In this document: in pieces, positions 22,556 through 62,816 of the stretch
How the letters are laid out: every line of letters begins with the position of its first letter
Position numbering within the stretch: the stretch's first letter is position 1
NCBI GenBank assembly: GCA_017640785.1
Contig: JAEPPZ010000002.1
Coordinates: forward strand, 281,748 to 345,747
Reading direction: 5' to 3'
DNA length: 64,000 bases
Origin: Balneola sp.
Lineage (GTDB): Bacteria; Bacteroidota; Rhodothermia; Balneolales; Balneolaceae
Translations under genes and position numbers: made by a program
Notes under the pieces: model-generated
Seen by the model: the letters and a program-made list of their open reading frames with translations, nothing else
The model's database searches: none
What the model was told of the DNA's origin: nothing

Positions 22556-22801
22556 ATGAATAATATAGAAGAAACAGAACATCAATCCTTTGAAGAAGAT
22601 CTTCAATTTCTAATTAAAACGTTAAAAGAGAGCTTCGAGTCCACGGATGTTCAATATTTTGTGGATGACCACAATGATACTTTGTATGTAAAACTCGAAG
22701 GCCTGGATGAATATCCTGAAGAAGAAATTGAAGAGATTGCAACTCCGATCTTTGAAATTCTTGATCTGGACTTTGAAGAGATTATTTTATTACCGCTTTA
22801 G
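22556..22801 (+). CDS. Small acidic hypothetical protein
   Basis: An 81-residue, strongly acidic protein (many Glu and Asp) from the ATG at 22556; the frame opens at a TTG 24 bases earlier. It has no membrane segment or cysteine. The segment VQYFVDDHNDTLYVKLEGLD then EYPEEEIEEIATPIFEIL suggests a small alpha/beta fold. I do not recognise it. It lies between anmK (divergent) and the threonine-synthase fusion gene (same strand, 83 bases downstream). Confidence 0.6.
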   Translation: MNNIEETEHQSFEEDLQFLIKTLKESFESTDVQYFVDDHNDTLYVKLEGLDEYPEEEIEEIATPIFEILDLDFEEIILLPL

Positions 22802-22884: not shown

Positions 22885-24591
22885 ATGAAGAGTTCTAATT
22901 CCGGCTACACTGTTCGATGCATTATTTGTGATACAGTAAATGACGAGCGCGTCACCAGCACCTACTGTACTAACTGCGGCGGCGTACTAACCGTTGACTA
23001 CAAAGAAGCCCGGGAAGAAATTCAATATCCTTTAAAGAATATTATTCCTGATCCGTTAAAAACAGATTTCACTTCTTTAAAGAAGCTGGAAAGACTTTCT
23101 GAATTATACGAAGCTGATCTTTATGCTAAACTTGAATTAGAAAATCCTACGGGATGCTTTAAAGATCGCGGAAGTTATATTGAAGTACTTAAAGCTTTAG
23201 AATTAGGCGCTGATGCCATTTGTTTAGCATCAACCGGAAATATGGCAGCTTCTGTAGCAGCGTATGCCTGTTATTTTAAAATTCCTTGCTTTGTTTTTGT
23301 GCCTGAACAAACACCGGATGCTAAACTAGCTCAATCCACTATTTACGATGCCACTATAATCAGAATAAAAGGTGATTTCAGAACTTGTGAACTGCTTTGT
23401 CGTGAATTCGCCAAATCAGGGAATTATTATTTAGCAGGCGATTATGTATTCAGGCAGGAAGGACAAAAATCCTTTTCTTATGAGCTGATTGAGCAAGGTG
23501 CAATGGATTATGATTATATCTTTGTGCCGATTGGAGCAGGAACTAACTTTGCTGCTATTTATAAAGGATTAGTGGAATTAAAAGCAGCCGGAAGAATAGA
23601 CAAAATCCCAAGTTTTGTTGCCGTTCAGCCTGAACAAAGTTCTCCTGTAGTTGAGGGCATTTTCAAAAAAGAAAAAATCATTAAGGACCAAGTAAATACA
23701 ATGGCTGATGCCGTAGCGGTTGCTGATCCTTTCGATTTCTATAAAGTTCTGGAAGGCATCAACGAAACAAACGGACATGCTTTTACGGCTACCGAAAATG
23801 AACTATTGTCTTCAATGAAAGAAATGACCGTGGAGGAAGGAATTTTCACAGAGCCGGCATGTGCAATTCCTTTGGCTTGCTTCAAAAATAATCTGGATAT
23901 CTTTAAAGGTAAGAAATGTCTGTTTGTTCTTACAGGAACAGGATTAAAAGCCGCTCATATTGTAGCTAAGTATTCCCTTTCTTCTCCTATCCTTTCTCCA
24001 AAACTGGAACGCATTCAGCAGTATATAGAATCCGGATTCCCGGATATGCAGAAAAATAGTTGGGGGCAATCCAGAGATCTTTTCTCAGGGAATGTCACTT
24101 TGGATGAAAATCATGAAAAGCTCTATACGGAATACGTTAACGGGATCAATAAAAAGGGAAAAACCCTTAGAGAAGCAGAGATAAAAGCTCTTAAATCAAT
24201 GGTTTCTGCAACAGATGCTGATCTTGAATTCCCGGTTGAGGTTGTTGATTACAAAATTACTATGCGGAAGCATGGATTAGTTGCCGCTGCTGTTAAAATG
24301 AAGATCAATGACGGTGAAGAAGTCGTTTCTCTTGAACAAGGTGTTGGCCCTATGGACGCAGTTCTTGCCGCTATGAAAGCCGAAACAGATTCATTTCTGG
24401 CACTGCAGATACTTAATCACGAAGTAGAAATTTTAAGCCCTGATACGGATTCACTTGTTATTGTAACTTTAACCCTCGAAAAAGAAGGACATGAATTTAC
24501 AGCAAAAGGAGCTTCACCCGATACTATAGAAGCACTGATTCAGGCGTTCGTAAATGGATTGGCAATAGCAAATAAAGCGTTGGCGGTATAA
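22885..24591 (+). CDS. Threonine-synthase-like PLP enzyme fused to a LeuA-type regulatory domain
   Basis: A 568-residue protein with three parts. Residues 1-35 form a zinc ribbon (Cys12, Cys15, Cys28, Cys31). Residues 40-365 are a fold-type II PLP enzyme of the threonine synthase group: NPTGCFKDRGS with Schiff-base Lys93, LASTGNMAASVAAYA for phosphate binding, and VPIGAGTNFAAIYKG. Residues about 445-568 match the allosteric/dimer domain of 2-isopropylmalate synthase: VEVVDYKITMRKHG, LEQGVGPMDAVLAAM and GASPDTIEALIQAFVNGLA. The family reaction would be O-phosphohomoserine to threonine. The C-terminal domain binds leucine or related acids in LeuA, so feedback by a branched-chain product is inferred. 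A classical ThrC exists at 61530, so the true substrate may differ. Confidence 0.85.
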   Translation: MKSSNSGYTVRCIICDTVNDERVTSTYCTNCGGVLTVDYKEAREEIQYPLKNIIPDPLKTDFTSLKKLERLSELYEADLYAKLELENPTGCFKDRGSYIEVLKALELGADAICLASTGNMAASVAAYACYFKIPCFVFVPEQTPDAKLAQSTIYDATIIRIKGDFRTCELLCREFAKSGNYYLAGDYVFRQEGQKSFSYELIEQGAMDYDYIFVPIGAGTNFAAIYKGLVELKAAGRIDKIPSFVAVQPEQSSPVVEGIFKKEKIIKDQVNTMADAVAVADPFDFYKVLEGINETNGHAFTATENELLSSMKEMTVEEGIFTEPACAIPLACFKNNLDIFKGKKCLFVLTGTGLKAAHIVAKYSLSSPILSPKLERIQQYIESGFPDMQKNSWGQSRDLFSGNVTLDENHEKLYTEYVNGINKKGKTLREAEIKALKSMVSATDADLEFPVEVVDYKITMRKHGLVAAAVKMKINDGEEVVSLEQGVGPMDAVLAAMKAETDSFLALQILNHEVEILSPDTDSLVIVTLTLEKEGHEFTAKGASPDTIEALIQAFVNGLAIANKALAV

Positions 24592-28567: not shown

Positions 28568-29237
28568 TATTTTTTGTGATGAAATCAAACAGTTGTCCAA
28601 AGGTATAAATACCGTTTGTTAAATTCTGATTTTTGATCAATTGTTCCGCTGCCCAAATTGCGCCTTCTGCAAACAGAGCTCTGTCTAAAGCATCATGTTT
28701 AAGTGTTATTCTCTCATTTGCCGTCGATACTGTCAATTCATGGATACCGTTCACATCTCCTTCTCTTGCTGAAGTGATTTCAGCTTCTTTATTTAACCAT
28801 TCCTTCCAGGAAAGAGCCGTGCCACTTGGAGCATCCTTTTTGTGGATATGATGCACTTCATGAATTTTGATCTCTGGTTCTTTTAATATTACTGATCCAG
28901 CTGAAATAGCTTCAATTGCATTTCGGATAATATTCATCCCTAAACTGAAATTGGTAGCCAACACCCATTTGGTTTCCATTTTTTGGACTTTATCTTCCAG
29001 ATCTTCCGGCCAGGAAAATCCGGTACTTCCCCAGGCAGCAGGAATGCCGGATTCTAAAACCTTAGGTAAAATATCTTTTACAGCATCTCCGGGAACAAAA
29101 ATGATTACAGCATCACTTTCTTTTAACTTTTCAACTGTTGGGGGATTGGATTCATCGAATGCATAAGCGAGATTATCGCCCAGCATTTCAACTACTTTAC
29201 TTCCGGTTTTACCGGTACCAATTACTGAGATTTTCAT
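28560..29237 (-). CDS. dapB: 4-hydroxy-tetrahydrodipicolinate reductase
   Basis: A 225-residue NAD(P)H-dependent reductase, short compared with the E. coli form (273) but like other Bacteroidota proteins. The nucleotide-binding ISVIGTGKTGSKVVEML is at the N-terminus; TNFSLGMNIIRNAIEAIS and the substrate motif EVHHIHKKDAPSGTALSWKE follow. It reduces the DapA product to tetrahydrodipicolinate. Its ATG overlaps the lysC stop by 4 bases and its 3' end overlaps dapA, so lysC, dapB and dapA are translationally coupled. Confidence 0.94.
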   Translation of the reverse strand: MKISVIGTGKTGSKVVEMLGDNLAYAFDESNPPTVEKLKESDAVIIFVPGDAVKDILPKVLESGIPAAWGSTGFSWPEDLEDKVQKMETKWVLATNFSLGMNIIRNAIEAISAGSVILKEPEIKIHEVHHIHKKDAPSGTALSWKEWLNKEAEITSAREGDVNGIHELTVSTANERITLKHDALDRALFAEGAIWAAEQLIKNQNLTNGIYTFGQLFDFITKNNE

Positions 29238-30562
29238 ATTTCAATAAACTCTTTATGCAACAATTTCACAATAGCTTCACCTTCCGATTCATCAGCTAGA
29301 AAACAGATATTGTTTTCGCTGGCACCATGGCAAACCATCCTGATATTGAAATCCTTTAGTTTATCAAATATAGCTCCGCTTATTCCTGCGGTTTTATTCA
29401 GATTATTCCCGATCAGTGCTACCAAAGAATATTCCTTTTCGATTTTAACTTCGCAAAACTTTTTCAATTCGTTAATTACATCCGAAGTTAACTCTACTTT
29501 GTTCGATGCATTAACGGCTGTATCAAGCGTTAAAGATACGCTTACCTCACTAGTACTTACCAGATCCACAGAAATTTTATAATTCGCTAATACCTGAAAT
29601 AATTTTGCAAGAAATCCATACTGATGAAGCATCGCCAAACTTTTAACTGTCAAAAGGGTTTGATTTTTTCTAAGTGACAATGCTCTTATTACCGGTCTTT
29701 CCATTGATTCATGAACGATCAATGTTCCCTCTTTTTCAGGCTCACTGGTTGAAGCCACTCTTACATCAACTTTACCTCTTATTGCGGGTTTTAAAGTGGC
29801 GGGATGAAGTACTTTTCCCCCAAATACCGAAAGCTCAGCGGCTTCATCAAAAGTGATCTCTTTGATAGGTCTGGCTTCTTTCACAACTCTTGGATCCGTA
29901 GAATAGATTCCGGCAACATCAGTCCAGATTTCCAACTTCTCTGTTTCAAGAGCTTCTGCAAACAATGCTGCTGAAAAATCGCTCCCTCCTCTGCCTAATG
30001 TGGTTGTGTTTCCAAATATATCCGAACCGATAAATCCCTGTGTTAAATACACTGAATCTGAATTTACCTTTTCATTAATATTTTTCTTCAGTTTTGGAAG
30101 ATCAACAACTGCATTTCCGAAATTAGAATCTGTTTTCAGAAATTCACGGGCATCTAACCACTTTGCATCCACTCCATTCTCTTTGAGAACATGGATAAAG
30201 ATCTTTGTAGACATCAATTCACCGAAGGAAACTAAACGATCTTTCCATCGCTTATCTCTGGCAACCTGCTCCAAGTGCTGTCGTAGCTGAGTAAGCTCTT
30301 CTTTAAAGTCCCTTTCAGCTTCTTCCTTATTTTCCAGCTCATGGATTATTGAAAGGTGCCTTTCTTTGATGCGAATCAAGATCTCTTCCTGAGATGTAGC
30401 ATCCAGTTCTGAAATCCCGAGAGCAACCAGATCATTGGTTGTACCGGAAGTTGCACTAATTACAATTAACTTTCTGTTTGTGTCTGCACCAACAATTTCA
30501 GCACTGTTTTTCATTGCCTGAAAAGCACCTACGCTGGTTCCACCAAATTTTGAAACGATCAT
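29234..30562 (-). CDS. lysC: Aspartate kinase, monofunctional
   Basis: A 442-residue enzyme. The kinase domain begins IVSKFGGTSVGAFQAMKNS; TTTLGRGGSDFSAALFA, EIWTDVAGIYSTDPRVV and FGGKVLHPATLKPAI are the standard motifs. Two C-terminal ACT domains follow (about 300-442). It makes aspartyl-phosphate, the first step for lysine, threonine and methionine. Co-location with dapB, dapA and dapD suggests this is the lysine-dedicated, lysine-inhibited isozyme, separate from the ThrA kinase at 58181; inhibitor specificity is inferred. First gene of the unit; the 158-base gap before it must hold its promoter. Confidence 0.94.
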   Translation of the reverse strand: MIVSKFGGTSVGAFQAMKNSAEIVGADTNRKLIVISATSGTTNDLVALGISELDATSQEEILIRIKERHLSIIHELENKEEAERDFKEELTQLRQHLEQVARDKRWKDRLVSFGELMSTKIFIHVLKENGVDAKWLDAREFLKTDSNFGNAVVDLPKLKKNINEKVNSDSVYLTQGFIGSDIFGNTTTLGRGGSDFSAALFAEALETEKLEIWTDVAGIYSTDPRVVKEARPIKEITFDEAAELSVFGGKVLHPATLKPAIRGKVDVRVASTSEPEKEGTLIVHESMERPVIRALSLRKNQTLLTVKSLAMLHQYGFLAKLFQVLANYKISVDLVSTSEVSVSLTLDTAVNASNKVELTSDVINELKKFCEVKIEKEYSLVALIGNNLNKTAGISGAIFDKLKDFNIRMVCHGASENNICFLADESEGEAIVKLLHKEFIEI

Positions 30563-48644: not shown

Positions 48645-49811
48645 TTATGCTGTTAGAGAATCAGATGTTTGAGAGAATAACTGTATCAAATCCTTATCAG
48701 TTACTACTTTTTTAGTGTCTGCGATAGATAAAAATCTTTTGTAATGTTCTTCCAATTCATTTTTGCTTACTTCAAAACCCAGTCTCTTTCCCCGGAATTT
48801 AAGAGCAGCTCTTCCACTTCGGGCTGTTAGAACAATAGAAGATTCGCTTACGCCCACTTCCAGAGGATCAATAATTTCGTAGGTTTCTCTATTTTTTATA
48901 ACTCCATCCTGATGAATTCCTGACGAGTGCGCAAACGCATTAGCTCCAACAATTGCTTTATTAGCCTGAACCGGCATTTTCATCTTTTCAGAGACCAATT
49001 CACTTACAGATTTCAAACATCTTGTATTGATACCTGTGTCATATTCTAAGCTTTTTTGTTGTCTTAGTATCATGACAACTTCTTCTAATGAAGCATTACC
49101 GGCTCGCTCTCCAATACCATTCATTGTACATTCTACCTGAGTTGCGCCGTTCACTACTCCCGATATAGAGTTTGCAGTTGCCAAGCCAAGATCATTATGA
49201 CAGTGAGTAGAAATAGTCACATTCTGAATGCCTTTTACATTCTCATATAGATATTTAATTTTTTCACCATACACCCAAGGCATACAATATCCGGTTGTAT
49301 CAGGAATATTCAGTACTGTTGCTCCGGCTTTAATAACTTTTTCCAAAATAGTAGCAAGGAATTCGTTTTCTGTTCTACCTGCATCTTCCGCATAGAATTC
49401 AACATCTTCAACAAAAGTCTTGGCATATTTTACTGCGGCCACTCCCCGCTCTACTACCTTTTCTCTGGTAGTTCTTAGTTTATCAAACACATGACTGTCT
49501 GAAGTACCGATACCGGTATGGATCCTGCTATTTTTTGCATCTTCAATTGCTTCTGCGGCGACTTTTATATCGTTTTTAACAGCTCTTGATAATGCACATA
49601 CCCTTGTATTCTTAATAACCTTGGATATTTCCTGAACAGATTTAAAATCTCCCGGGCTGGATACAGGAAATCCAACTTCCATTACATCAACGCCAAGAGC
49701 TTCCAGAGCTAAAGCGATTTCAATTTTTTCTTTTGTGTTTAGTTGACATCCCGGTACTTGCTCACCGTCTCTTAGTGTGGTATCAAAAATTTGTATTCGC
49801 TTGTTTGGCAT
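48645..49811 (-). CDS. leuA: 2-isopropylmalate synthase, short form without regulatory domain
   Basis: A 388-residue enzyme with the DRE-TIM barrel: [19 protein letters not shown], then metal-binding [19 protein letters not shown] and [18 protein letters not shown], and [19 protein letters not shown] in subdomain I. It condenses acetyl-CoA with 2-oxoisovalerate. Classical LeuA proteins are about 510-520 residues; here the chain stops after the accessory subdomain, so the C-terminal leucine-sensing domain is absent. Length agrees with other short Bacteroidota LeuA proteins. It leads the leu cluster, with a 9-base gap to leuC. Confidence 0.93.
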
Positions 49812-56890: not shown

Positions 56891-58147
56891 GTGAAAGTTA
56901 AAACAACCTACTACCCTGCTTTAAAAAATATCGAAAAAGCCGCTGAAACGTTAGAATCTGTTGTATATAAAACTCCTGTACAGCAAAGTTTCTCTCTTTC
57001 AGAAAGATATAACTCGAATATTTATTTAAAGCGGGAAGATACCCAAATAGTGCGTTCCTATAAAATTCGGGGTGCATTCAATAAGATAAACTCAATAAAA
57101 GACACTAAGAGAAGTGTAGTTTGTGCAAGTGCCGGTAATCATGCACAGGGTGTTGCACTATCCTGCTATAAACTCGGAATTAAAGGCGTAATATTTATGC
57201 CTGCAACCACTCCTAAACAGAAGATCCGGCAAGTGAAAATGTTTGGAAAAGAAATGGTTGAGGTGATTATTGATGGAGATACTTTTGATGATTCTTCATT
57301 GTTGGCAAAAACATTCTGCGAAAAAAATAATGGAGTCTTTGTACATCCTTTTGATGATGAGTTAGTAATTGAAGGACAAGCAACCGTTGGCTTAGAAATT
57401 TGCAACCAAACTGACTTTAAAATTGATTATCTATTTATTCCCGTTGGAGGTGGCGGGCTTTCATCAGGAGTTTCAAGTGTGTTTAAAGCTCTGAGTCCGG
57501 AGACAAAAATTATCGGTGTTGAACCAACAGGAGCACCTGCCATGTTTAATGCTTTTAAACATGGACAAATACAAGAACTAAGGGAAATCGATAAATTTGT
57601 TGATGGAGCTTCTGTAAAAAAAGCAGGCGAACTGAACTTTCCTATTTGTAAAGATAATATGGACGAAATTTCCTTAGTAGATGAAGGAAAATTATGCTCA
57701 ACGATTATTCAAATGTACAACGAAAATGGTATAGTACTGGAACCTGCCGGTGCACTTTCTGTTGCTGTTCTGGATAAATTTAAAGATGAAATAAAGGATA
57801 AAAATGTAGTGTGTATCCTTTCGGGTGGTAACAACGATATTACCAGAACTGAAGAAATACGTGAGAGGTCACTGCTTTACGAAGGTCTAATGCACTATTT
57901 CATTGTTCGTTTTCCGCAAAGAGCAGGTGCTCTAAAAGAATTTGTGGAAGAAATTTTGGGACAAAACGATGACATAGTTCACTTCGAATACACTAAAAAA
58001 ACATCCAGAGAAAGAGGTCCCGCTTTGGTTGGTATAGAACTACAATCAAAAGATGACCTTGAACCCTTGATTGAAAAAATGAAATTGAAAAACTTCTTTG
58101 GAGAATATATTAATATAAAACCGGATCTGTTTAGCTATATGATCTGA
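56891..58147 (+). CDS. ilvA: Threonine dehydratase (threonine ammonia-lyase)
   Basis: A 418-residue fold-type II PLP enzyme starting with GTG. The Schiff-base lysine is Lys58 in VRSYKIRGAFNKI; SAGNHAQGVALSCYKLG binds phosphate; IPVGGGGLSSGVSSVF is the Gly-rich loop. A C-terminal ACT-like domain (about 330-418, LMHYFIVRFPQRAGALKEFV) is shorter than the double domain of E. coli IlvA, as in the TIGR02079 type. It deaminates threonine to 2-oxobutyrate, joining the thr and ilv halves of this unit. Confidence 0.94.
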   Translation: MKVKTTYYPALKNIEKAAETLESVVYKTPVQQSFSLSERYNSNIYLKREDTQIVRSYKIRGAFNKINSIKDTKRSVVCASAGNHAQGVALSCYKLGIKGVIFMPATTPKQKIRQVKMFGKEMVEVIIDGDTFDDSSLLAKTFCEKNNGVFVHPFDDELVIEGQATVGLEICNQTDFKIDYLFIPVGGGGLSSGVSSVFKALSPETKIIGVEPTGAPAMFNAFKHGQIQELREIDKFVDGASVKKAGELNFPICKDNMDEISLVDEGKLCSTIIQMYNENGIVLEPAGALSVAVLDKFKDEIKDKNVVCILSGGNNDITRTEEIRERSLLYEGLMHYFIVRFPQRAGALKEFVEEILGQNDDIVHFEYTKKTSRERGPALVGIELQSKDDLEPLIEKMKLKNFFGEYINIKPDLFSYMI

Positions 58148-58180: not shown

Positions 58181-60613
58181 ATGAAAATATTAAAGTTTGG
58201 AGGCACATCTGTTGGCTCCGAAAATGCAATCAGAAAAGTTGCTGAAATTATCCGCACGCAAAAAAAACAAGTTGTAATTATAACTTCTGCTGTAGGTGGG
58301 GTTACGGATCAATTAGTAAAAATCGGCGAGTTAGCTGCTAAGGCAGATGAACGTTATGAAGTTTTGTTATCGAAATTAGTAACACTCCATAAAGAACTGT
58401 ACCTAAGCCTGACCGGAAAGAAACCGGATGAAACTTTCCATCAAATCATCCTTGAGTTACAAGAAATTTGCAAAGGTGTTGAACTTATTAAAGAACTTAC
58501 CCCTCGTAGTTTTGACTATATTTTAAGTATAGGGGAGCGCCTTTCTTCACTGATTCTAAACGACTTTTTTATAGTTGAGGGGTTGGACATTCAATTATTT
58601 GATAGCCGTTTTATTATAAAAACCGATGATAATTTTGGAAATGCCAATGTAGAATTCACTGAAACAAACAAACGAATCAAAGAAGCTAAGAAATCATTCA
58701 AAAGAATAAACCTCTTTCCGGGTTTTATAGCTTCCAATAACGATTCAGTAACAACAACTTTGGGAAGAGGCGGATCAGATTACACTGCAGCTATACTGGC
58801 CGCGGCATTAGATGTTGAAGAGTTTGAGATATGGACTGATGTAGATGGATTAATGACAGCAGATCCAAGAATCGTAAAGAATTCAAAAGTCATCGAACAT
58901 GTTTCTTATGAAGAAGCCATGGAGCTCTCTCATTTTGGAGCAAAAGTTATATATCCACCGAGCATCCACCCTGCTCTTAGTAAAGGTATTCCTATCAGGA
59001 TAAAGAATACTTTTAATCCTGATCATCATGGAACTCTAATAACTAAAGAATGGGATGAAAACAAAGAACTGATCCGAGGCATTTCTAGTATAAAATCTGT
59101 GTCGCTGGTTACGCTAAGTGGTAGTAGTATGGTAGGTATTCCCCGGTTTTCTTCCCGGCTATTTAAAGCTCTCTCTCTTGCAAAGATCAATGTGATACTT
59201 ATAACTCAATCCAGTTCAGAACATTCAATAAGTGTTTCCATTGATGTAAAAGACGCTAAGAAAGCTGAACTAGTACTTACTGATGAATTCAGTGAATCAA
59301 TTAGATCTAAAAAGATCGATCCCATAGAAGTTGAAAATGGTTTGTCTATTCTTGCCCTTGTTGGTTCGAACATGAGAAATCAAGTTGGGGTAAGTGGCCA
59401 AATGTTTAATGTACTTGGCAAGAATGGTGTAAGCATTAAAGCAATTGCTCAGGGTTCTTCTGAACGAAATATCTCAGCTGTAATTAACCAAACTGATCTA
59501 GATAAAGCCCTTAATGTACTTCATGAAAGTTTTTTCCAATATGTAACGCGACGTATAAACCTGTTTATCATTGGCACAGGTAATGTTGGTAAAGCTTTTA
59601 TTGATCAACTGACCCAGCAATTCTCTTTTTTAAAAGTGAATCATCAACTCAATATCAAAATTATTGGTGTTGCTAATTCAAGAAAAATGAAGTTCAATAA
59701 AAATGGAATTCCCTTATCAAAATGGGAATCTGTATTAAATACAGGCGATACATATTCGGAAAATGAATTTCTCGATAATATGTATTCTATGAACCTACGA
59801 AATAGCATTTTTATTGATATAACAGCATCTGAAAATATAGCATCATTGTATCAACAGATCCTGCAGAAAAGTATTTCGGTTGTAACTCCGAATAAAATTG
59901 CTGCTACCGGCTCATATTCTGATTATCTTGCTTTGAAAGCATCCAGTAAGAAATTTGGTAGTAAATTCTATTTTGAAACAAATGTTTGTGCAGGATTACC
60001 TGTCTTATCTACACTTAATGACCTCGTTCGGAGTGGTGATCAGATAAATCAAATTGAAGCTGTGCTTTCCGGAACTTTAGTTTATCTGTTCAATGAATAC
60101 GACGGGTCTACAAAGTTTGTGGATGTTATTAAAAAAGCAAAAAAATTGGGCTACACAGAACCGGATCCCCGGCTCGACCTGTTTGGCTCAGATGTAAAAC
60201 GAAAAATTCTAATCTTGATCAGAGAAAGTGGCTATCAATTTGAGTATGAAGACATTGTCCTCGAATCATTTTTACCTGAAAGTTGCATCAAAACTTCATC
60301 GCTCGATGATTTTTACGCACAGGTTGAAAAAGAAGAAGAGCATTTCTTAAATCTTTATAAAAATGCCCAATCAAATAATACCCGCCTCAAGGTTGTAGCA
60401 ACATACAAAGATGGAAAGGGTTCGGTAAAATTAAAAGCTATTGAATCCAGTCATCCTTTTTATAATTTAGACGGTAAAGATAATATCGTTTTATTTTACA
60501 CTAACAGATATAAAGAACAACCAATGGTAATTAAGGGCGCGGGAGCAGGAGCAGATGTAACAGCTTCAGGAATTTTTGCAGATGTCCTCCGAATTTCCCA
60601 ATCTGATTTATAA
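58181..60613 (+). CDS. thrA: Bifunctional aspartokinase I/homoserine dehydrogenase I
   Basis: An 810-residue fusion. The aspartokinase domain spans about 1-300 (ILKFGGTSVGSENAIRKVAE, TLGRGGSDYTAAILAAALD, EIWTDVDGLMTADPRIV). Two ACT repeats lie around 310-455. Homoserine dehydrogenase runs from about 460 (NLFIIGTGNVGKAFIDQLTQ) through FETNVCAGLPVLSTLNDLV and GYTEPDPRLDLFGSDVKRK. It matches E. coli ThrA in order and length (820). It overlaps thrB by one base (TAATG). Likely threonine-inhibited. Confidence 0.95.
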   Translation: MKILKFGGTSVGSENAIRKVAEIIRTQKKQVVIITSAVGGVTDQLVKIGELAAKADERYEVLLSKLVTLHKELYLSLTGKKPDETFHQIILELQEICKGVELIKELTPRSFDYILSIGERLSSLILNDFFIVEGLDIQLFDSRFIIKTDDNFGNANVEFTETNKRIKEAKKSFKRINLFPGFIASNNDSVTTTLGRGGSDYTAAILAAALDVEEFEIWTDVDGLMTADPRIVKNSKVIEHVSYEEAMELSHFGAKVIYPPSIHPALSKGIPIRIKNTFNPDHHGTLITKEWDENKELIRGISSIKSVSLVTLSGSSMVGIPRFSSRLFKALSLAKINVILITQSSSEHSISVSIDVKDAKKAELVLTDEFSESIRSKKIDPIEVENGLSILALVGSNMRNQVGVSGQMFNVLGKNGVSIKAIAQGSSERNISAVINQTDLDKALNVLHESFFQYVTRRINLFIIGTGNVGKAFIDQLTQQFSFLKVNHQLNIKIIGVANSRKMKFNKNGIPLSKWESVLNTGDTYSENEFLDNMYSMNLRNSIFIDITASENIASLYQQILQKSISVVTPNKIAATGSYSDYLALKASSKKFGSKFYFETNVCAGLPVLSTLNDLVRSGDQINQIEAVLSGTLVYLFNEYDGSTKFVDVIKKAKKLGYTEPDPRLDLFGSDVKRKILILIRESGYQFEYEDIVLESFLPESCIKTSSLDDFYAQVEKEEEHFLNLYKNAQSNNTRLKVVATYKDGKGSVKLKAIESSHPFYNLDGKDNIVLFYTNRYKEQPMVIKGAGAGADVTASGIFADVLRISQSDL

Positions 60614-61533
60614 TGAATGAAATAAAAGTTTTTGCACCTGCTTCAGTAGCTAATGTTGGTCCAGGGTATGATACTTTTGGCTTCGCTATTGAAGAACTAG
60701 GTGATATTATTACTGTTTCAAAAAGAAACGATCAGAAATTAAATTTTCTACCTTCTATAGGTGCTGAATTACCAGTTGAACCCTCAGAAAATGTAGCCGG
60801 AGTTGCCATTCAATCGTTTTTGACTAAGTTGGGCTCCACTCAAGGCTTCGATATTACTATTGAGAAAATGTTTCGTCCTGGAAGTGGACTCGGAAGCAGT
60901 GCTTCAAGTGCGGCAGGTTCTGTTTTTGCTGTTAATGCTTTGTTAGGGTATCCATACACAACAAAAGAACTTCTCCCCTATGCTTTAGAAGGTGAAGCCT
61001 TAGCTTCAAAATGCTATCATGCAGATAATGTAGCTCCCTCACTTCTTGGAGGGTTTCAAGCAGTAAGAAGTTATGAACCTCTCGATATTTTCAGCATTAA
61101 AAATTTAGAAGCACTACACGTGTTGATCATATTTCCTGACGTCCAGATCAAAACTGTAGAAGCAAAAAAGCTTCTTCCTGTAACCCTTTCCATAAAAGAT
61201 GCCCGAGAGCAATGGGGAAATGTTGCTGCAGTTATTCACGCTTTGCATACCAAAGATTATGAATTACTGAACAGAGCAATCACTGACAGAATTGCTGAAC
61301 CTGTTCGAAAAAATCTTATTCCCGGTTACGAGAAAGTAAAAAAAATAGCATCCGAATCCGGTTCGGTTGGTTTTAATATTTCGGGTTCGGGACCATCGAT
61401 GTTTGCTTTATTCACAGATGAAAGCAACTTAACATCATGTTCTGAAAAAATTGAACAATTCTACTCTTCAATTGATCTTTCTGTAAAGATCCATATTTCA
61501 GGTATTAACTCAGAGGGCTGTAAGATCTTATGA
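60613..61533 (+). CDS. thrB: Homoserine kinase
   Basis: A 306-residue GHMP kinase: VFAPASVANVGPGYDTFGFA at the N-terminus, the ATP loop FRPGSGLGSSASSAAGSVFA and the C-terminal FNISGSGPSMFALF. It makes O-phosphohomoserine for threonine synthase. It overlaps thrA by one base and thrC by four, so the three are translationally coupled. Confidence 0.95.
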   Translation: MNEIKVFAPASVANVGPGYDTFGFAIEELGDIITVSKRNDQKLNFLPSIGAELPVEPSENVAGVAIQSFLTKLGSTQGFDITIEKMFRPGSGLGSSASSAAGSVFAVNALLGYPYTTKELLPYALEGEALASKCYHADNVAPSLLGGFQAVRSYEPLDIFSIKNLEALHVLIIFPDVQIKTVEAKKLLPVTLSIKDAREQWGNVAAVIHALHTKDYELLNRAITDRIAEPVRKNLIPGYEKVKKIASESGSVGFNISGSGPSMFALFTDESNLTSCSEKIEQFYSSIDLSVKIHISGINSEGCKIL

Positions 61534-62816
61534 AATTCTATTCAACGAATAAAAAAGTAGCTCCCCTATCTTTTAAAGAAGCGGTTATTCATAGTCTCCC
61601 CTCTGATCGTGGTCTTTATTTTCCTGAAAAAATCCCAACTTTGGAAAGTGATTTTTTTAAGGAATTGAATTCATATACCCTTTCTGAAATTGGCTACAAG
61701 ATACTCACTCCTTTTACTCATGAGGATATTCCAAAAGCTAAACTTAAGAATATAACAGAAGAGGCTTTTAACTTTGATGTTCCTTTAAAAAAAGTTGAAA
61801 CCGGGATTTATAGTCTGGAATTATTTCATGGACCAACTTATGCCTTTAAAGATATTGGAGCTCGATTTTTAGCTCGCTGCTTGGCTTATTTCAATGAATC
61901 ACATAATCAGGAAGTCACCATTCTTGTTGCAACTTCAGGGGATACAGGTGGAGCTGTTGCTTCGGGTTTTTATGATGTTGATGGTGTCAATGTTGTGATT
62001 TTATATCCAAGTGGTAAGGTTAGTGAATTACAGGAAAAGCAACTAACCACTCTTGGTAAAAATATTACAGCAGTTGAAATAGATGGTACTTTTGATGATT
62101 GCCAAAATATGGTAAAACAAGCTTTTTTAGATAAAGAACTAAATGAAACTCTAAACCTCAGTTCCGCTAACTCAATAAATATTGCTCGCTGGCTACCTCA
62201 ATCTATTTATTATTTTGAAGCATTTAAGCAGTTACAAAATCGGGATAATCTGGTATTCTCTGTGCCTTCAGGGAACTATGGTAATCTATCTGCAGGATTA
62301 TTAGCTCATAGAATGGGATTGCCGGTAAAACATTTTATAGCAGCATCAAATCAAAATGATGTGATACCCAGATTTTTAACTACAGAGCAATATGAACCAT
62401 TAAAAACTATTCCCACTTTGTCGAATGCTATGGATGTTAGCGATCCAAGCAATTACCCCCGACTAATGGAACTAGTAAATGGAAACCATGCAGAGTTACA
62501 AAGTGTAGTTAAAGGCTTTTCAATGGATGATGTTCAAACACTGGAAACTATCAAAAGCTGCTTTGATCAAAACTCATATATTACCGATCCTCATGGTGCC
62601 ATTGGCTATCAAGCATTAAAAGATATAATGACTGCTGATGAGAATGGAATATTTTTAGAGACTGCTCATTATTGCAAGTTTGTATCTACGGTTGAAAAAG
62701 CATTAGAAAAACCTCTATCTCAACCTGATTTTGTCTCTAACTTAATGAGTAAGCCCAAAAAGAGTATAACTATGAGCAGTAGCTTTAAGGAATTTAAAAG
62801 CTTTCTTTTCGGATAA
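61530..62816 (+). CDS. thrC: Threonine synthase
   Basis: A 428-residue fold-type II PLP enzyme of the enterobacterial/fungal ThrC type. The N-terminal MKFYSTNKKVAPLSFKEAV and LPSDRGLYFPEKIP are diagnostic; the Schiff-base lysine is Lys107 in GPTYAFKDIGARF, and the phosphate loop is VATSGDTGGAVASGFYDV. It converts O-phosphohomoserine to threonine. It differs clearly from the zinc-ribbon enzyme at 22885. Last gene of the unit; no obvious hairpin terminator follows in the 10 bases before the converging GNAT gene. Confidence 0.95.
   Translation: MKFYSTNKKVAPLSFKEAVIHSLPSDRGLYFPEKIPTLESDFFKELNSYTLSEIGYKILTPFTHEDIPKAKLKNITEEAFNFDVPLKKVETGIYSLELFHGPTYAFKDIGARFLARCLAYFNESHNQEVTILVATSGDTGGAVASGFYDVDGVNVVILYPSGKVSELQEKQLTTLGKNITAVEIDGTFDDCQNMVKQAFLDKELNETLNLSSANSINIARWLPQSIYYFEAFKQLQNRDNLVFSVPSGNYGNLSAGLLAHRMGLPVKHFIAASNQNDVIPRFLTTEQYEPLKTIPTLSNAMDVSDPSNYPRLMELVNGNHAELQSVVKGFSMDDVQTLETIKSCFDQNSYITDPHGAIGYQALKDIMTADENGIFLETAHYCKFVSTVEKALEKPLSQPDFVSNLMSKPKKSITMSSSFKEFKSFLFG

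What the first reader, a model, noticed from the sequence alone, without database searches (positions are those of the whole stretch)
22885..24591. Threonine-synthase-like enzyme fused to a LeuA-type allosteric domain
The C-terminal ~125 residues (about 445-568) carry the pattern of the 2-isopropylmalate synthase regulatory domain (GVGPMDAV, GASPDTIEA, QAFVNGLA), attached to a zinc-ribbon PLP enzyme with Lys93 in NPTGCFKDRGS. A separate canonical ThrC is encoded in the thr operon. So this protein may be a threonine synthase or threonine/serine dehydratase-like enzyme sensing leucine, isoleucine or a keto/hydroxy acid.
Basis: partly seen in the sequence, partly recalled or inferred. Interest (0 to 1): 0.8.

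Follow-up and report, generated by a model that had tools for sequence, protein, structure and literature searches.

The report
Threonine enzyme with borrowed regulatory domain
A marine bacterium carries a conserved enzyme whose front half resembles enzymes that make or break down threonine and whose back half is the amino-acid-sensing switch of a different enzyme (the leucine or citramalate pathway), and related genes in tiny-genome bacteria sit in isoleucine operons exactly where the usual threonine-degrading enzyme is missing.

Summary
The ORF at 22885-24591 (+, 568 aa) is a true single-chain fusion of a zinc-ribbon fold-type II PLP enzyme (PALP, E=4e-59) with a LeuA_dimer regulatory domain (62.2 bits against a cut-off of 24.9). 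An AlphaFold model of the tail matches only the regulatory domains of Leptospira citramalate synthase (isoleucine-bound) and M. tuberculosis LeuA. The fusion is intact in 42 of 68 genomes of the order and under strong purifying selection. Full-length homologues occur in Patescibacteria. There they lie in ilv operons (fusion-ilvE-ilvD-ilvC-ilvB; ilvE-ilvB-ilvH-fusion-ridA; fusion-ridA-ileS). None of 11 such genomes has a detectable IlvA, 10 have IlvC, and several lack the genes for threonine synthase's substrate. All fusions have AGDY where solved threonine synthases have NSxN. Best reading: a threonine-synthase-derived threonine deaminase under branched-chain (probably isoleucine) control. This is well supported for the Patescibacteria. 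It is less certain for Balneola, where canonical IlvA and ThrC coexist and relatives without the isoleucine pathway keep the fusion. Nothing was found on this architecture in the open literature held. The ligand, the substrate and the direction of regulation are inferred, not shown.

The parts
22885..24591 (+). Fusion gene, 568 aa (P0001)
   Evidence: full-length orthologues
22918..22977 (+). Zinc-ribbon-like N-terminus (C12-x2-C15 ... C28-x2-C31; C15 is lost in the Fodinibius group)
   Evidence: alignment; only weak Pfam zinc-ribbon matches, so zinc binding is inference
23071..23937 (+). PALP catalytic domain, residues 63-351
   Evidence: Pfam E=4e-59; best PDB relatives are threonine synthases 6cgq, 2zsj, 2d1f, 1uim
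23161..23163 (+). Lys93, predicted PLP Schiff-base lysine (NPTGCFKDRG), aligned with T. thermophilus TS Lys61
   Evidence: invariant in all fusions
23431..23469 (+). LAGDYVFRQEGQK (183-195): solved threonine synthases have VNSVNPxRxEGQK (A. thaliana ANSLNSLRLEGQK) here
23980..24189 (+). Helical linker, residues 366-435, including the LeuA subdomain-II-like segment (KKGKTLxExEI)
   Evidence: LeuA models match from residue 405; helices 408-423 and 430-442 in the model
24190..24561 (+). LeuA_dimer-type regulatory domain, residues 436-559, (BBBA)2 fold
   Evidence: PF08502 62.2 bits; PDB profile match; fold match
24340..24363 (+). GVGPMDAV motif (residues 486-493), equivalent to GDGGYDAF of LiCMS
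24514..24522 (+). S544-P545-D546 motif, equivalent to H-P493-D of the LiCMS isoleucine pocket
22556..22801 (+). Small acidic ORF upstream (81 aa, no Pfam match), conserved next to the fusion in Balneolales; probably not co-transcribed here
   Evidence: clustering; Pfam; inverted repeat followed by T-run after it read from the sequence
48645..49811 (-). Only leuA of the genome, 388 aa, no regulatory domain
56891..58147 (+). Canonical ilvA (THD1-type, ACT-like C-terminus)
   Evidence: TIGR02079 606 bits, cut-off 440.6; PF00585 match
61530..62816 (+). Canonical thrC in the thr operon
   Evidence: TIGR00260 312 bits, cut-off 167.1

Best explanation
The protein is an allosteric PLP ammonia-lyase that most likely converts L-threonine (perhaps also L-serine) to 2-oxobutyrate and ammonia. 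Its catalytic half comes from the threonine-synthase branch of the fold-type II family, not from IlvA. Its tail is the regulatory domain otherwise found on 2-isopropylmalate and citramalate synthases, together with the helical segment that precedes it there. A branched-chain amino acid, most likely isoleucine, binds the tail at the dimer interface and changes catalytic activity (feedback inhibition is the best guess). In Patescibacteria the same protein is the first enzyme of isoleucine synthesis and stands in for the absent IlvA. In Balneola it runs beside a canonical IlvA and may serve threonine disposal or balance. Shown: architecture, conservation, selection, fold, operon context, gene co-occurrence. 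Inferred: substrate, effector, direction of regulation, physiological role in Balneola.
For: Domain identity. Conservation; purifying selection. Patescibacteria operons: L149 and L150 fusion-ilvE-ilvD-ilvC-ilvB; L151 fusion-[unknown]-ilvE-ilvD-ilvB-ilvC; L152 ilvB-ilvC-[unknown]-ridA-fusion; L113 ilvE-ilvB-ilvH-fusion-ridA; L109 fusion-ridA; L108 fusion-ridA-ileS; L110 fusion-ilvE (identities checked by NCBIfam and by matches to the window's IlvC and IlvD). RidA removes the enamine that threonine and serine dehydratases release (established; PMC9127364). None of 11 Patescibacteria genomes with the fusion has a detectable IlvA, 10 have IlvC; G319, G317, G318, G321, G440 and G638 have no homoserine dehydrogenase, ThrB or ThrC hit, while G404, G316 and G320 have the fusion plus a canonical ThrC. 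In Balneolales, G023 has ilvD-ilvB-ilvN-ilvC-leuA, ThrC and ThrB but no IlvA, CimA or short dehydratase. Threonine-synthase-specific NSxNP is replaced by AGDY/CGDY in every fusion. Regulatory-pocket equivalents follow isoleucine-binding LiCMS (I458, V468, P493 kept) rather than LeuA (S, G, K). Precedent: Microcystis ThrC, of the same fold, deaminates threonine in vitro and the same is reported for T. thermophilus (PMC12172450).
Against: Balneola already has canonical IlvA, and 17 of 42 fusion-bearing genomes of the order do. At least ten Balneolales genomes keep the fusion without IlvC, so isoleucine synthesis cannot be its role there. The Balneola gene is not in an ilv operon. The Balneolales branch lacks about 20 residues, including the EGGTPL motif that the Patescibacteria proteins have, so substrate transfer by homology at 34-37% identity is not safe. 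The Patescibacteria versions pass NCBI threonine-synthase cut-offs, so annotation pipelines would call them threonine synthase. That all fusions share one origin is not significantly supported (70/42 and 66/50). The LiCMS pocket residues and the role of the TS NSxN motif are from memory.
Confidence: 0.55

Rival explanations
1. It is a second threonine synthase (O-phosphohomoserine to threonine) placed under branched-chain amino-acid control.
For: Best NCBIfam and PDB relatives are threonine synthases; Patescibacteria versions exceed TS equivalog cut-offs (307 and 313.9 against 303); Arg of the NPxR motif and EGQK are kept; TIGR00260 scores 160.2 for the window protein, just under 167.1.
Against: NSxNP is lost in all fusions; the genome has its own ThrC; several carriers have no ThrB or homoserine dehydrogenase hit and others already have ThrC; ilv, ridA and ileS context.
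Confidence: 0.2
2. In Balneolales the enzyme has moved to another substrate (serine, 3-hydroxyaspartate, a phospho-amino acid or a beta-replacement reaction), keeping branched-chain sensing as a nutrient signal; only the Patescibacteria members are threonine deaminases.
For: Kept in genomes without IlvC, ThrB or ThrC; kept beside IlvA; lost N-terminal EGGTPL segment and Tyr-to-His change in the effector pocket, both branch-specific; no ilv context.
Against: The AGDYxFRxEGQK, STGNMAAS and G-x-GTN active-site motifs are the same as in the Patescibacteria proteins.
Confidence: 0.2
3. The tail works in trans: it pairs with the short LeuA, which has no regulatory domain of its own, and couples leucine synthesis to this enzyme.
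For: Only LeuA_dimer domain in the genome, and the only LeuA is truncated.
Against: The fusion also occurs in genomes with a LeuA (G023) or a CimA (shown in G026 and G029) carrying its own regulatory domain and in genomes with no IlvC; domain-less LeuA proteins are known elsewhere (general knowledge).
Confidence: 0.04
4. Gene-prediction or assembly artefact, or chance similarity of the tail.
For: None found.
Against: Same open frame in independent genomes and two phyla, significant profile and fold matches, dN/dS about 0.02 in both halves.
Confidence: 0.01

Closest known systems
Threonine synthase, ThrC class of T. thermophilus, Aquifex, M. tuberculosis and B. subtilis (1uim, 2zsj, 2d1f, 6cgq)
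   Same: Fold-type II PLP core, N-terminal zinc ribbon in part of the family, FKDRG lysine, STGN loop, EGQK, 29-33% identity
   Different: NSxNP replaced by AGDY, GNAGN by GxGTN; extra LeuA-type tail; window protein below every TS equivalog cut-off
Biosynthetic threonine ammonia-lyase IlvA
   Same: Predicted reaction, C-terminal feedback domain on a fold-type II core, ilv operon position in Patescibacteria
   Different: Catalytic domain closer to threonine synthase (173 against 101 bits); regulatory domain is LeuA-type, not ACT-like PF00585
Citramalate synthase regulatory domain (LiCMS, 3f6g/3f6h)
   Same: Best solved relative of the tail by profile and by fold; isoleucine-pocket equivalents I458, V468, P493 kept
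   Different: Attached to a PLP enzyme instead of an HMGL-like TIM barrel; Tyr454 is His in Balneolales
2-isopropylmalate synthase LeuA (1sr9, 3fig)
   Same: Regulatory domain and preceding helical segment
   Different: No HMGL-like catalytic domain; pocket positions differ
Bifunctional ThrC of Microcystis aeruginosa (PMC12172450)
   Same: Threonine-synthase-fold enzyme with threonine deaminase activity
   Different: No regulatory tail seen in the passages read; retains threonine synthase activity

Membership tests
LeuA_dimer domain (PF08502) | Score above the Pfam gathering cut-off | tested here: met
   62.2 bits against 24.9; 74-84 bits in Patescibacteria
LeuA_dimer domain (PF08502) | (BBBA)2 fold of the LeuA/CimA regulatory domain | tested here: met
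LeuA_dimer domain (PF08502) | Binds leucine or isoleucine at a dimer interface | not testable with these tools
   only pocket residues compared
2-isopropylmalate / citramalate synthase | HMGL-like TIM-barrel catalytic domain | tested here: not met
Threonine synthase | PALP core with catalytic lysine | tested here: met
Threonine synthase | NCBIfam equivalog cut-off (window protein) | tested here: not met
   best 172.9 of 421 (PRK05638); TIGR00260 160.2 of 167.1
Threonine synthase | NCBIfam equivalog cut-off (Patescibacteria homologues) | tested here: met
   PRK08197 307 and 313.9 of 303
Threonine synthase | NSxNP-R substrate-phosphate motif | tested here: not met
   AGDY-xFR in all fusions; function of the motif from memory
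Threonine synthase | Genomes that carry it can make O-phosphohomoserine and lack another ThrC | tested here: not met
Threonine ammonia-lyase IlvA | IlvA equivalog cut-off | tested here: not met
   100.7 of 421
Threonine ammonia-lyase IlvA | Thr_dehydrat_C / ACT-like regulatory domain (PF00585) | tested here: not met
   absent from the protein
Threonine ammonia-lyase (function) | Position in ilv operons in place of ilvA | tested here: met
   Patescibacteria only; not in Balneolales
Threonine ammonia-lyase (function) | 2-oxobutyrate from threonine | not testable with these tools
   needs an enzyme assay

The most novel reading that the evidence does not exclude
The fused regulatory domain also acts in trans on the regulatory-domain-less LeuA of the same cell, so one protein couples threonine breakdown to leucine synthesis through a shared branched-chain sensor.
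Probability: 0.04. Interest if true: 0.8.

Novelty: new variant of a known kind. Interest (0 to 1): 0.57.

Why it matters
Two routes lead to 2-oxobutyrate for isoleucine: threonine deaminase, normally controlled by an ACT-like domain, and citramalate synthase, controlled by a LeuA-type domain. Here a PLP enzyme from the threonine-synthase branch appears to have taken the switch of the rival route. If confirmed, it is a case of allosteric-domain transfer between unrelated enzymes that meet in one pathway. It would fill the missing IlvA step in isoleucine operons of Patescibacteria, lineages usually regarded as poor in amino-acid synthesis. It would also correct proteins that annotation pipelines would call threonine synthase.

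Tried and rejected
Single-sequence search of the tail against PDB found nothing; the profile search did. The viral-contig search found no relative; among plasmid records none covers 80% of the query, so no sign of spread on mobile elements. Trans-replacement of LeuA regulation was considered because this is the only PF08502 domain in the genome, and largely rejected: 12 fusion-bearing genomes of the order have a second, full-length PF08502 protein, of which I checked three (G023 is LeuA; G026 and G029 are CimA-like). My first reading of the other 531-563-aa PF08502 proteins as LeuA was dropped for that reason; they are probably CimA, unchecked. Cysteate synthase was considered because CapA2 (9k3c) appears in the fold hits, but the score is 50.9 of 324.9. 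Trees of the catalytic domain place all fusions on one side of a branch, but without significant support. No Rfam element lies in the window. Literature searches for this architecture returned nothing relevant, and a review of PLP-enzyme allostery does not mention LeuA-type domains.

Full report
What is there. The window comes from a Balneola-type genome: the nearest named records are Balneola sp. at 99% identity. The ORF 22885-24591 encodes 568 residues. Pfam finds PALP at 63-351 (E=4e-59) and LeuA_dimer at 436-559 (62.2 bits, cut-off 24.9). LeuA models match from residue 405 on, so the helical segment that precedes the regulatory domain in LeuA is present as well as the domain itself. A profile of the tail finds only the LiCMS regulatory domain among solved structures (E=5e-12, next 0.04). 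The AlphaFold model of the whole chain (pLDDT 85, pTM 0.67) matches threonine synthases first, then threonine deaminases. The model of the tail alone (pLDDT 89) matches isoleucine-bound LiCMS and M. tuberculosis LeuA at E<1e-6, with the next hit at 1.5e-3.

It is one protein. The same full-length frame is found in all eight genomes of the genus and in 42 of 68 well-completed genomes of the order. In a sample of 296 genomes of the phylum it occurs in 31, all of the same order. Against a 97%-identical relative dN/dS is 0.025 in the catalytic part, 0.017 in the linker and 0.024 in the regulatory part. Both halves are therefore kept by selection.

Relatives in another phylum. A scan of 84,980 species, limited to loci matching two short peptide patterns, also returned Patescibacteria (Gracilibacteria, Peregrinibacteria, Wirthbacteria) with both domains (PALP plus LeuA_dimer at 74-84 bits) and about 32-37% identity to the window protein over its length. 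A sample of 380 Patescibacteria genomes gave seven hits, one of which (G642) is an unfused 346-aa homologue.

Context in Patescibacteria. L149 and L150: fusion, ilvE, ilvD, ilvC, ilvB in one direction. L151: fusion, an unknown ORF, ilvE, ilvD, ilvB, ilvC. L152: ilvB, ilvC, an unknown ORF, ridA, fusion. L113: ilvE, ilvB, ilvH, fusion, ridA. L109: fusion, ridA. L108: fusion, ridA, ileS. L110: fusion, ilvE. L114: leuC and leuB nearby. L112: no such context. The neighbours were checked with NCBIfam and by matches to the window's IlvC and IlvD. One weak point is the ilvH of L113, which scores 41.8 of 119. RidA hydrolyses the enamine that threonine and serine dehydratases release (PMC9127364). The fusion thus stands where ilvA would stand.

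Gene inventory. None of 11 Patescibacteria genomes with the fusion has an IlvA-type hit other than the fusion itself, and 10 have IlvC. Six (G319, G317, G318, G321, G440, G638) show no homoserine dehydrogenase, ThrB or ThrC. G404, G316 and G320 have a canonical ThrC besides. These genomes may be incomplete, so each absence is weak on its own; the pattern is consistent. A threonine synthase would lack its substrate in the first group and be redundant in the second.

Active site. In the alignment with solved threonine synthases the fusions keep the PLP lysine, FKDRG, STGN, the glycine loop, the Arg before EGQK and the Thr near the pyridine nitrogen. They have AGDY (CGDY in one Patescibacteria protein) where the synthases have NSxN, and GxGTN where most synthases have GNAGN. 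From memory, the Asn-Ser pair of the T. thermophilus enzyme contacts the phosphate of O-phosphohomoserine; I could not check this in a paper held here. A threonine synthase of the same fold is known to deaminate threonine (Microcystis, PMC12172450, which cites the same for T. thermophilus), so the chemistry is within reach of the scaffold.

Effector. Positions I recalled for the LiCMS isoleucine pocket carry the recalled letters in 3f6g, which supports the numbering. The Patescibacteria fusions keep Leu451, Tyr or Phe454, Ile458, Val468 and Pro493; the Balneolales fusions keep Ile458 (Val in one), Val468 and mostly Pro493 but have His at 454. A LeuA from G023 has Ser, Gly and Lys at 458, 468 and 493. 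Isoleucine is therefore the first ligand to test. This is a hint, not a result.

What does not fit. In Balneola a canonical IlvA and ThrC exist. Of 42 fusion-bearing genomes in the order, 17 have IlvA. Twelve others have a second PF08502 protein: CimA-like in G026 and G029, LeuA in G023. At least ten genomes have the fusion but no IlvC (G006, G013, G014, G018, G021, G170, G178, G278, G327, G328). So isoleucine synthesis is not its general role in Balneolales, although in G023 it is the only candidate for making 2-oxobutyrate, and in G005 and G010 the only regulated candidate found. The Balneolales branch has also lost the EGGTPL segment. I therefore put threonine deamination at about 0.55 for the window protein, and higher (about 0.8) for the Patescibacteria members.

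Verdict. The protein works most likely as a branched-chain-regulated threonine ammonia-lyase. By strict membership it is neither an IlvA (wrong catalytic branch, wrong regulatory domain) nor a LeuA or CimA (no TIM barrel). The window protein misses the threonine-synthase cut-offs and motif, although the Patescibacteria homologues pass the cut-offs. It is a new variant of a known kind.

Noticed in passing
window 48645-49811 (-): The only LeuA of the genome is 388 aa and has no regulatory domain, so leucine synthesis may lack the usual end-point control.
   Followed up: partly
window 22556-22801 (+): Small acidic ORF (81 aa, no Pfam match) lies directly upstream of the fusion in most Balneolales loci, in L098 and L106 with overlapping ends; in the window an inverted repeat plus T-run follows it.
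   Followed up: partly
L155 11191-13988 and L156 11517-14314: In two relatives of the order a CimA-like gene (532 aa, citramal_synth 736 bits in L155) sits next to a short 401-aa LeuA-like gene inside an ilv-leu operon; the order uses at least three entries to 2-oxobutyrate.
   Followed up: partly
L153 6402-9097: Patescibacteria genome with an unfused 346-aa homologue (LCGDYLLRREGQK) directly after a 553-aa ORF that looks like a histidine ammonia-lyase.
   Followed up: no
L037 1492-2550 (-), genome C3:71512-72432: A further threonine-synthase-like PLP protein (PRK06381, 405 bits, cut-off 266) in the same genome, besides ThrC and the fusion.
   Followed up: no
L151 7181-8116 (-): A DUF2268 predicted Zn-protease ORF is inserted between the fusion and ilvE in one Patescibacteria ilv operon.
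   Followed up: no
window 29234-30562 (-) and 58181-60613 (+): Two aspartate kinases: a separate one beside dapB/dapA/dapD and one fused to homoserine dehydrogenase in the thr operon.
   Followed up: no
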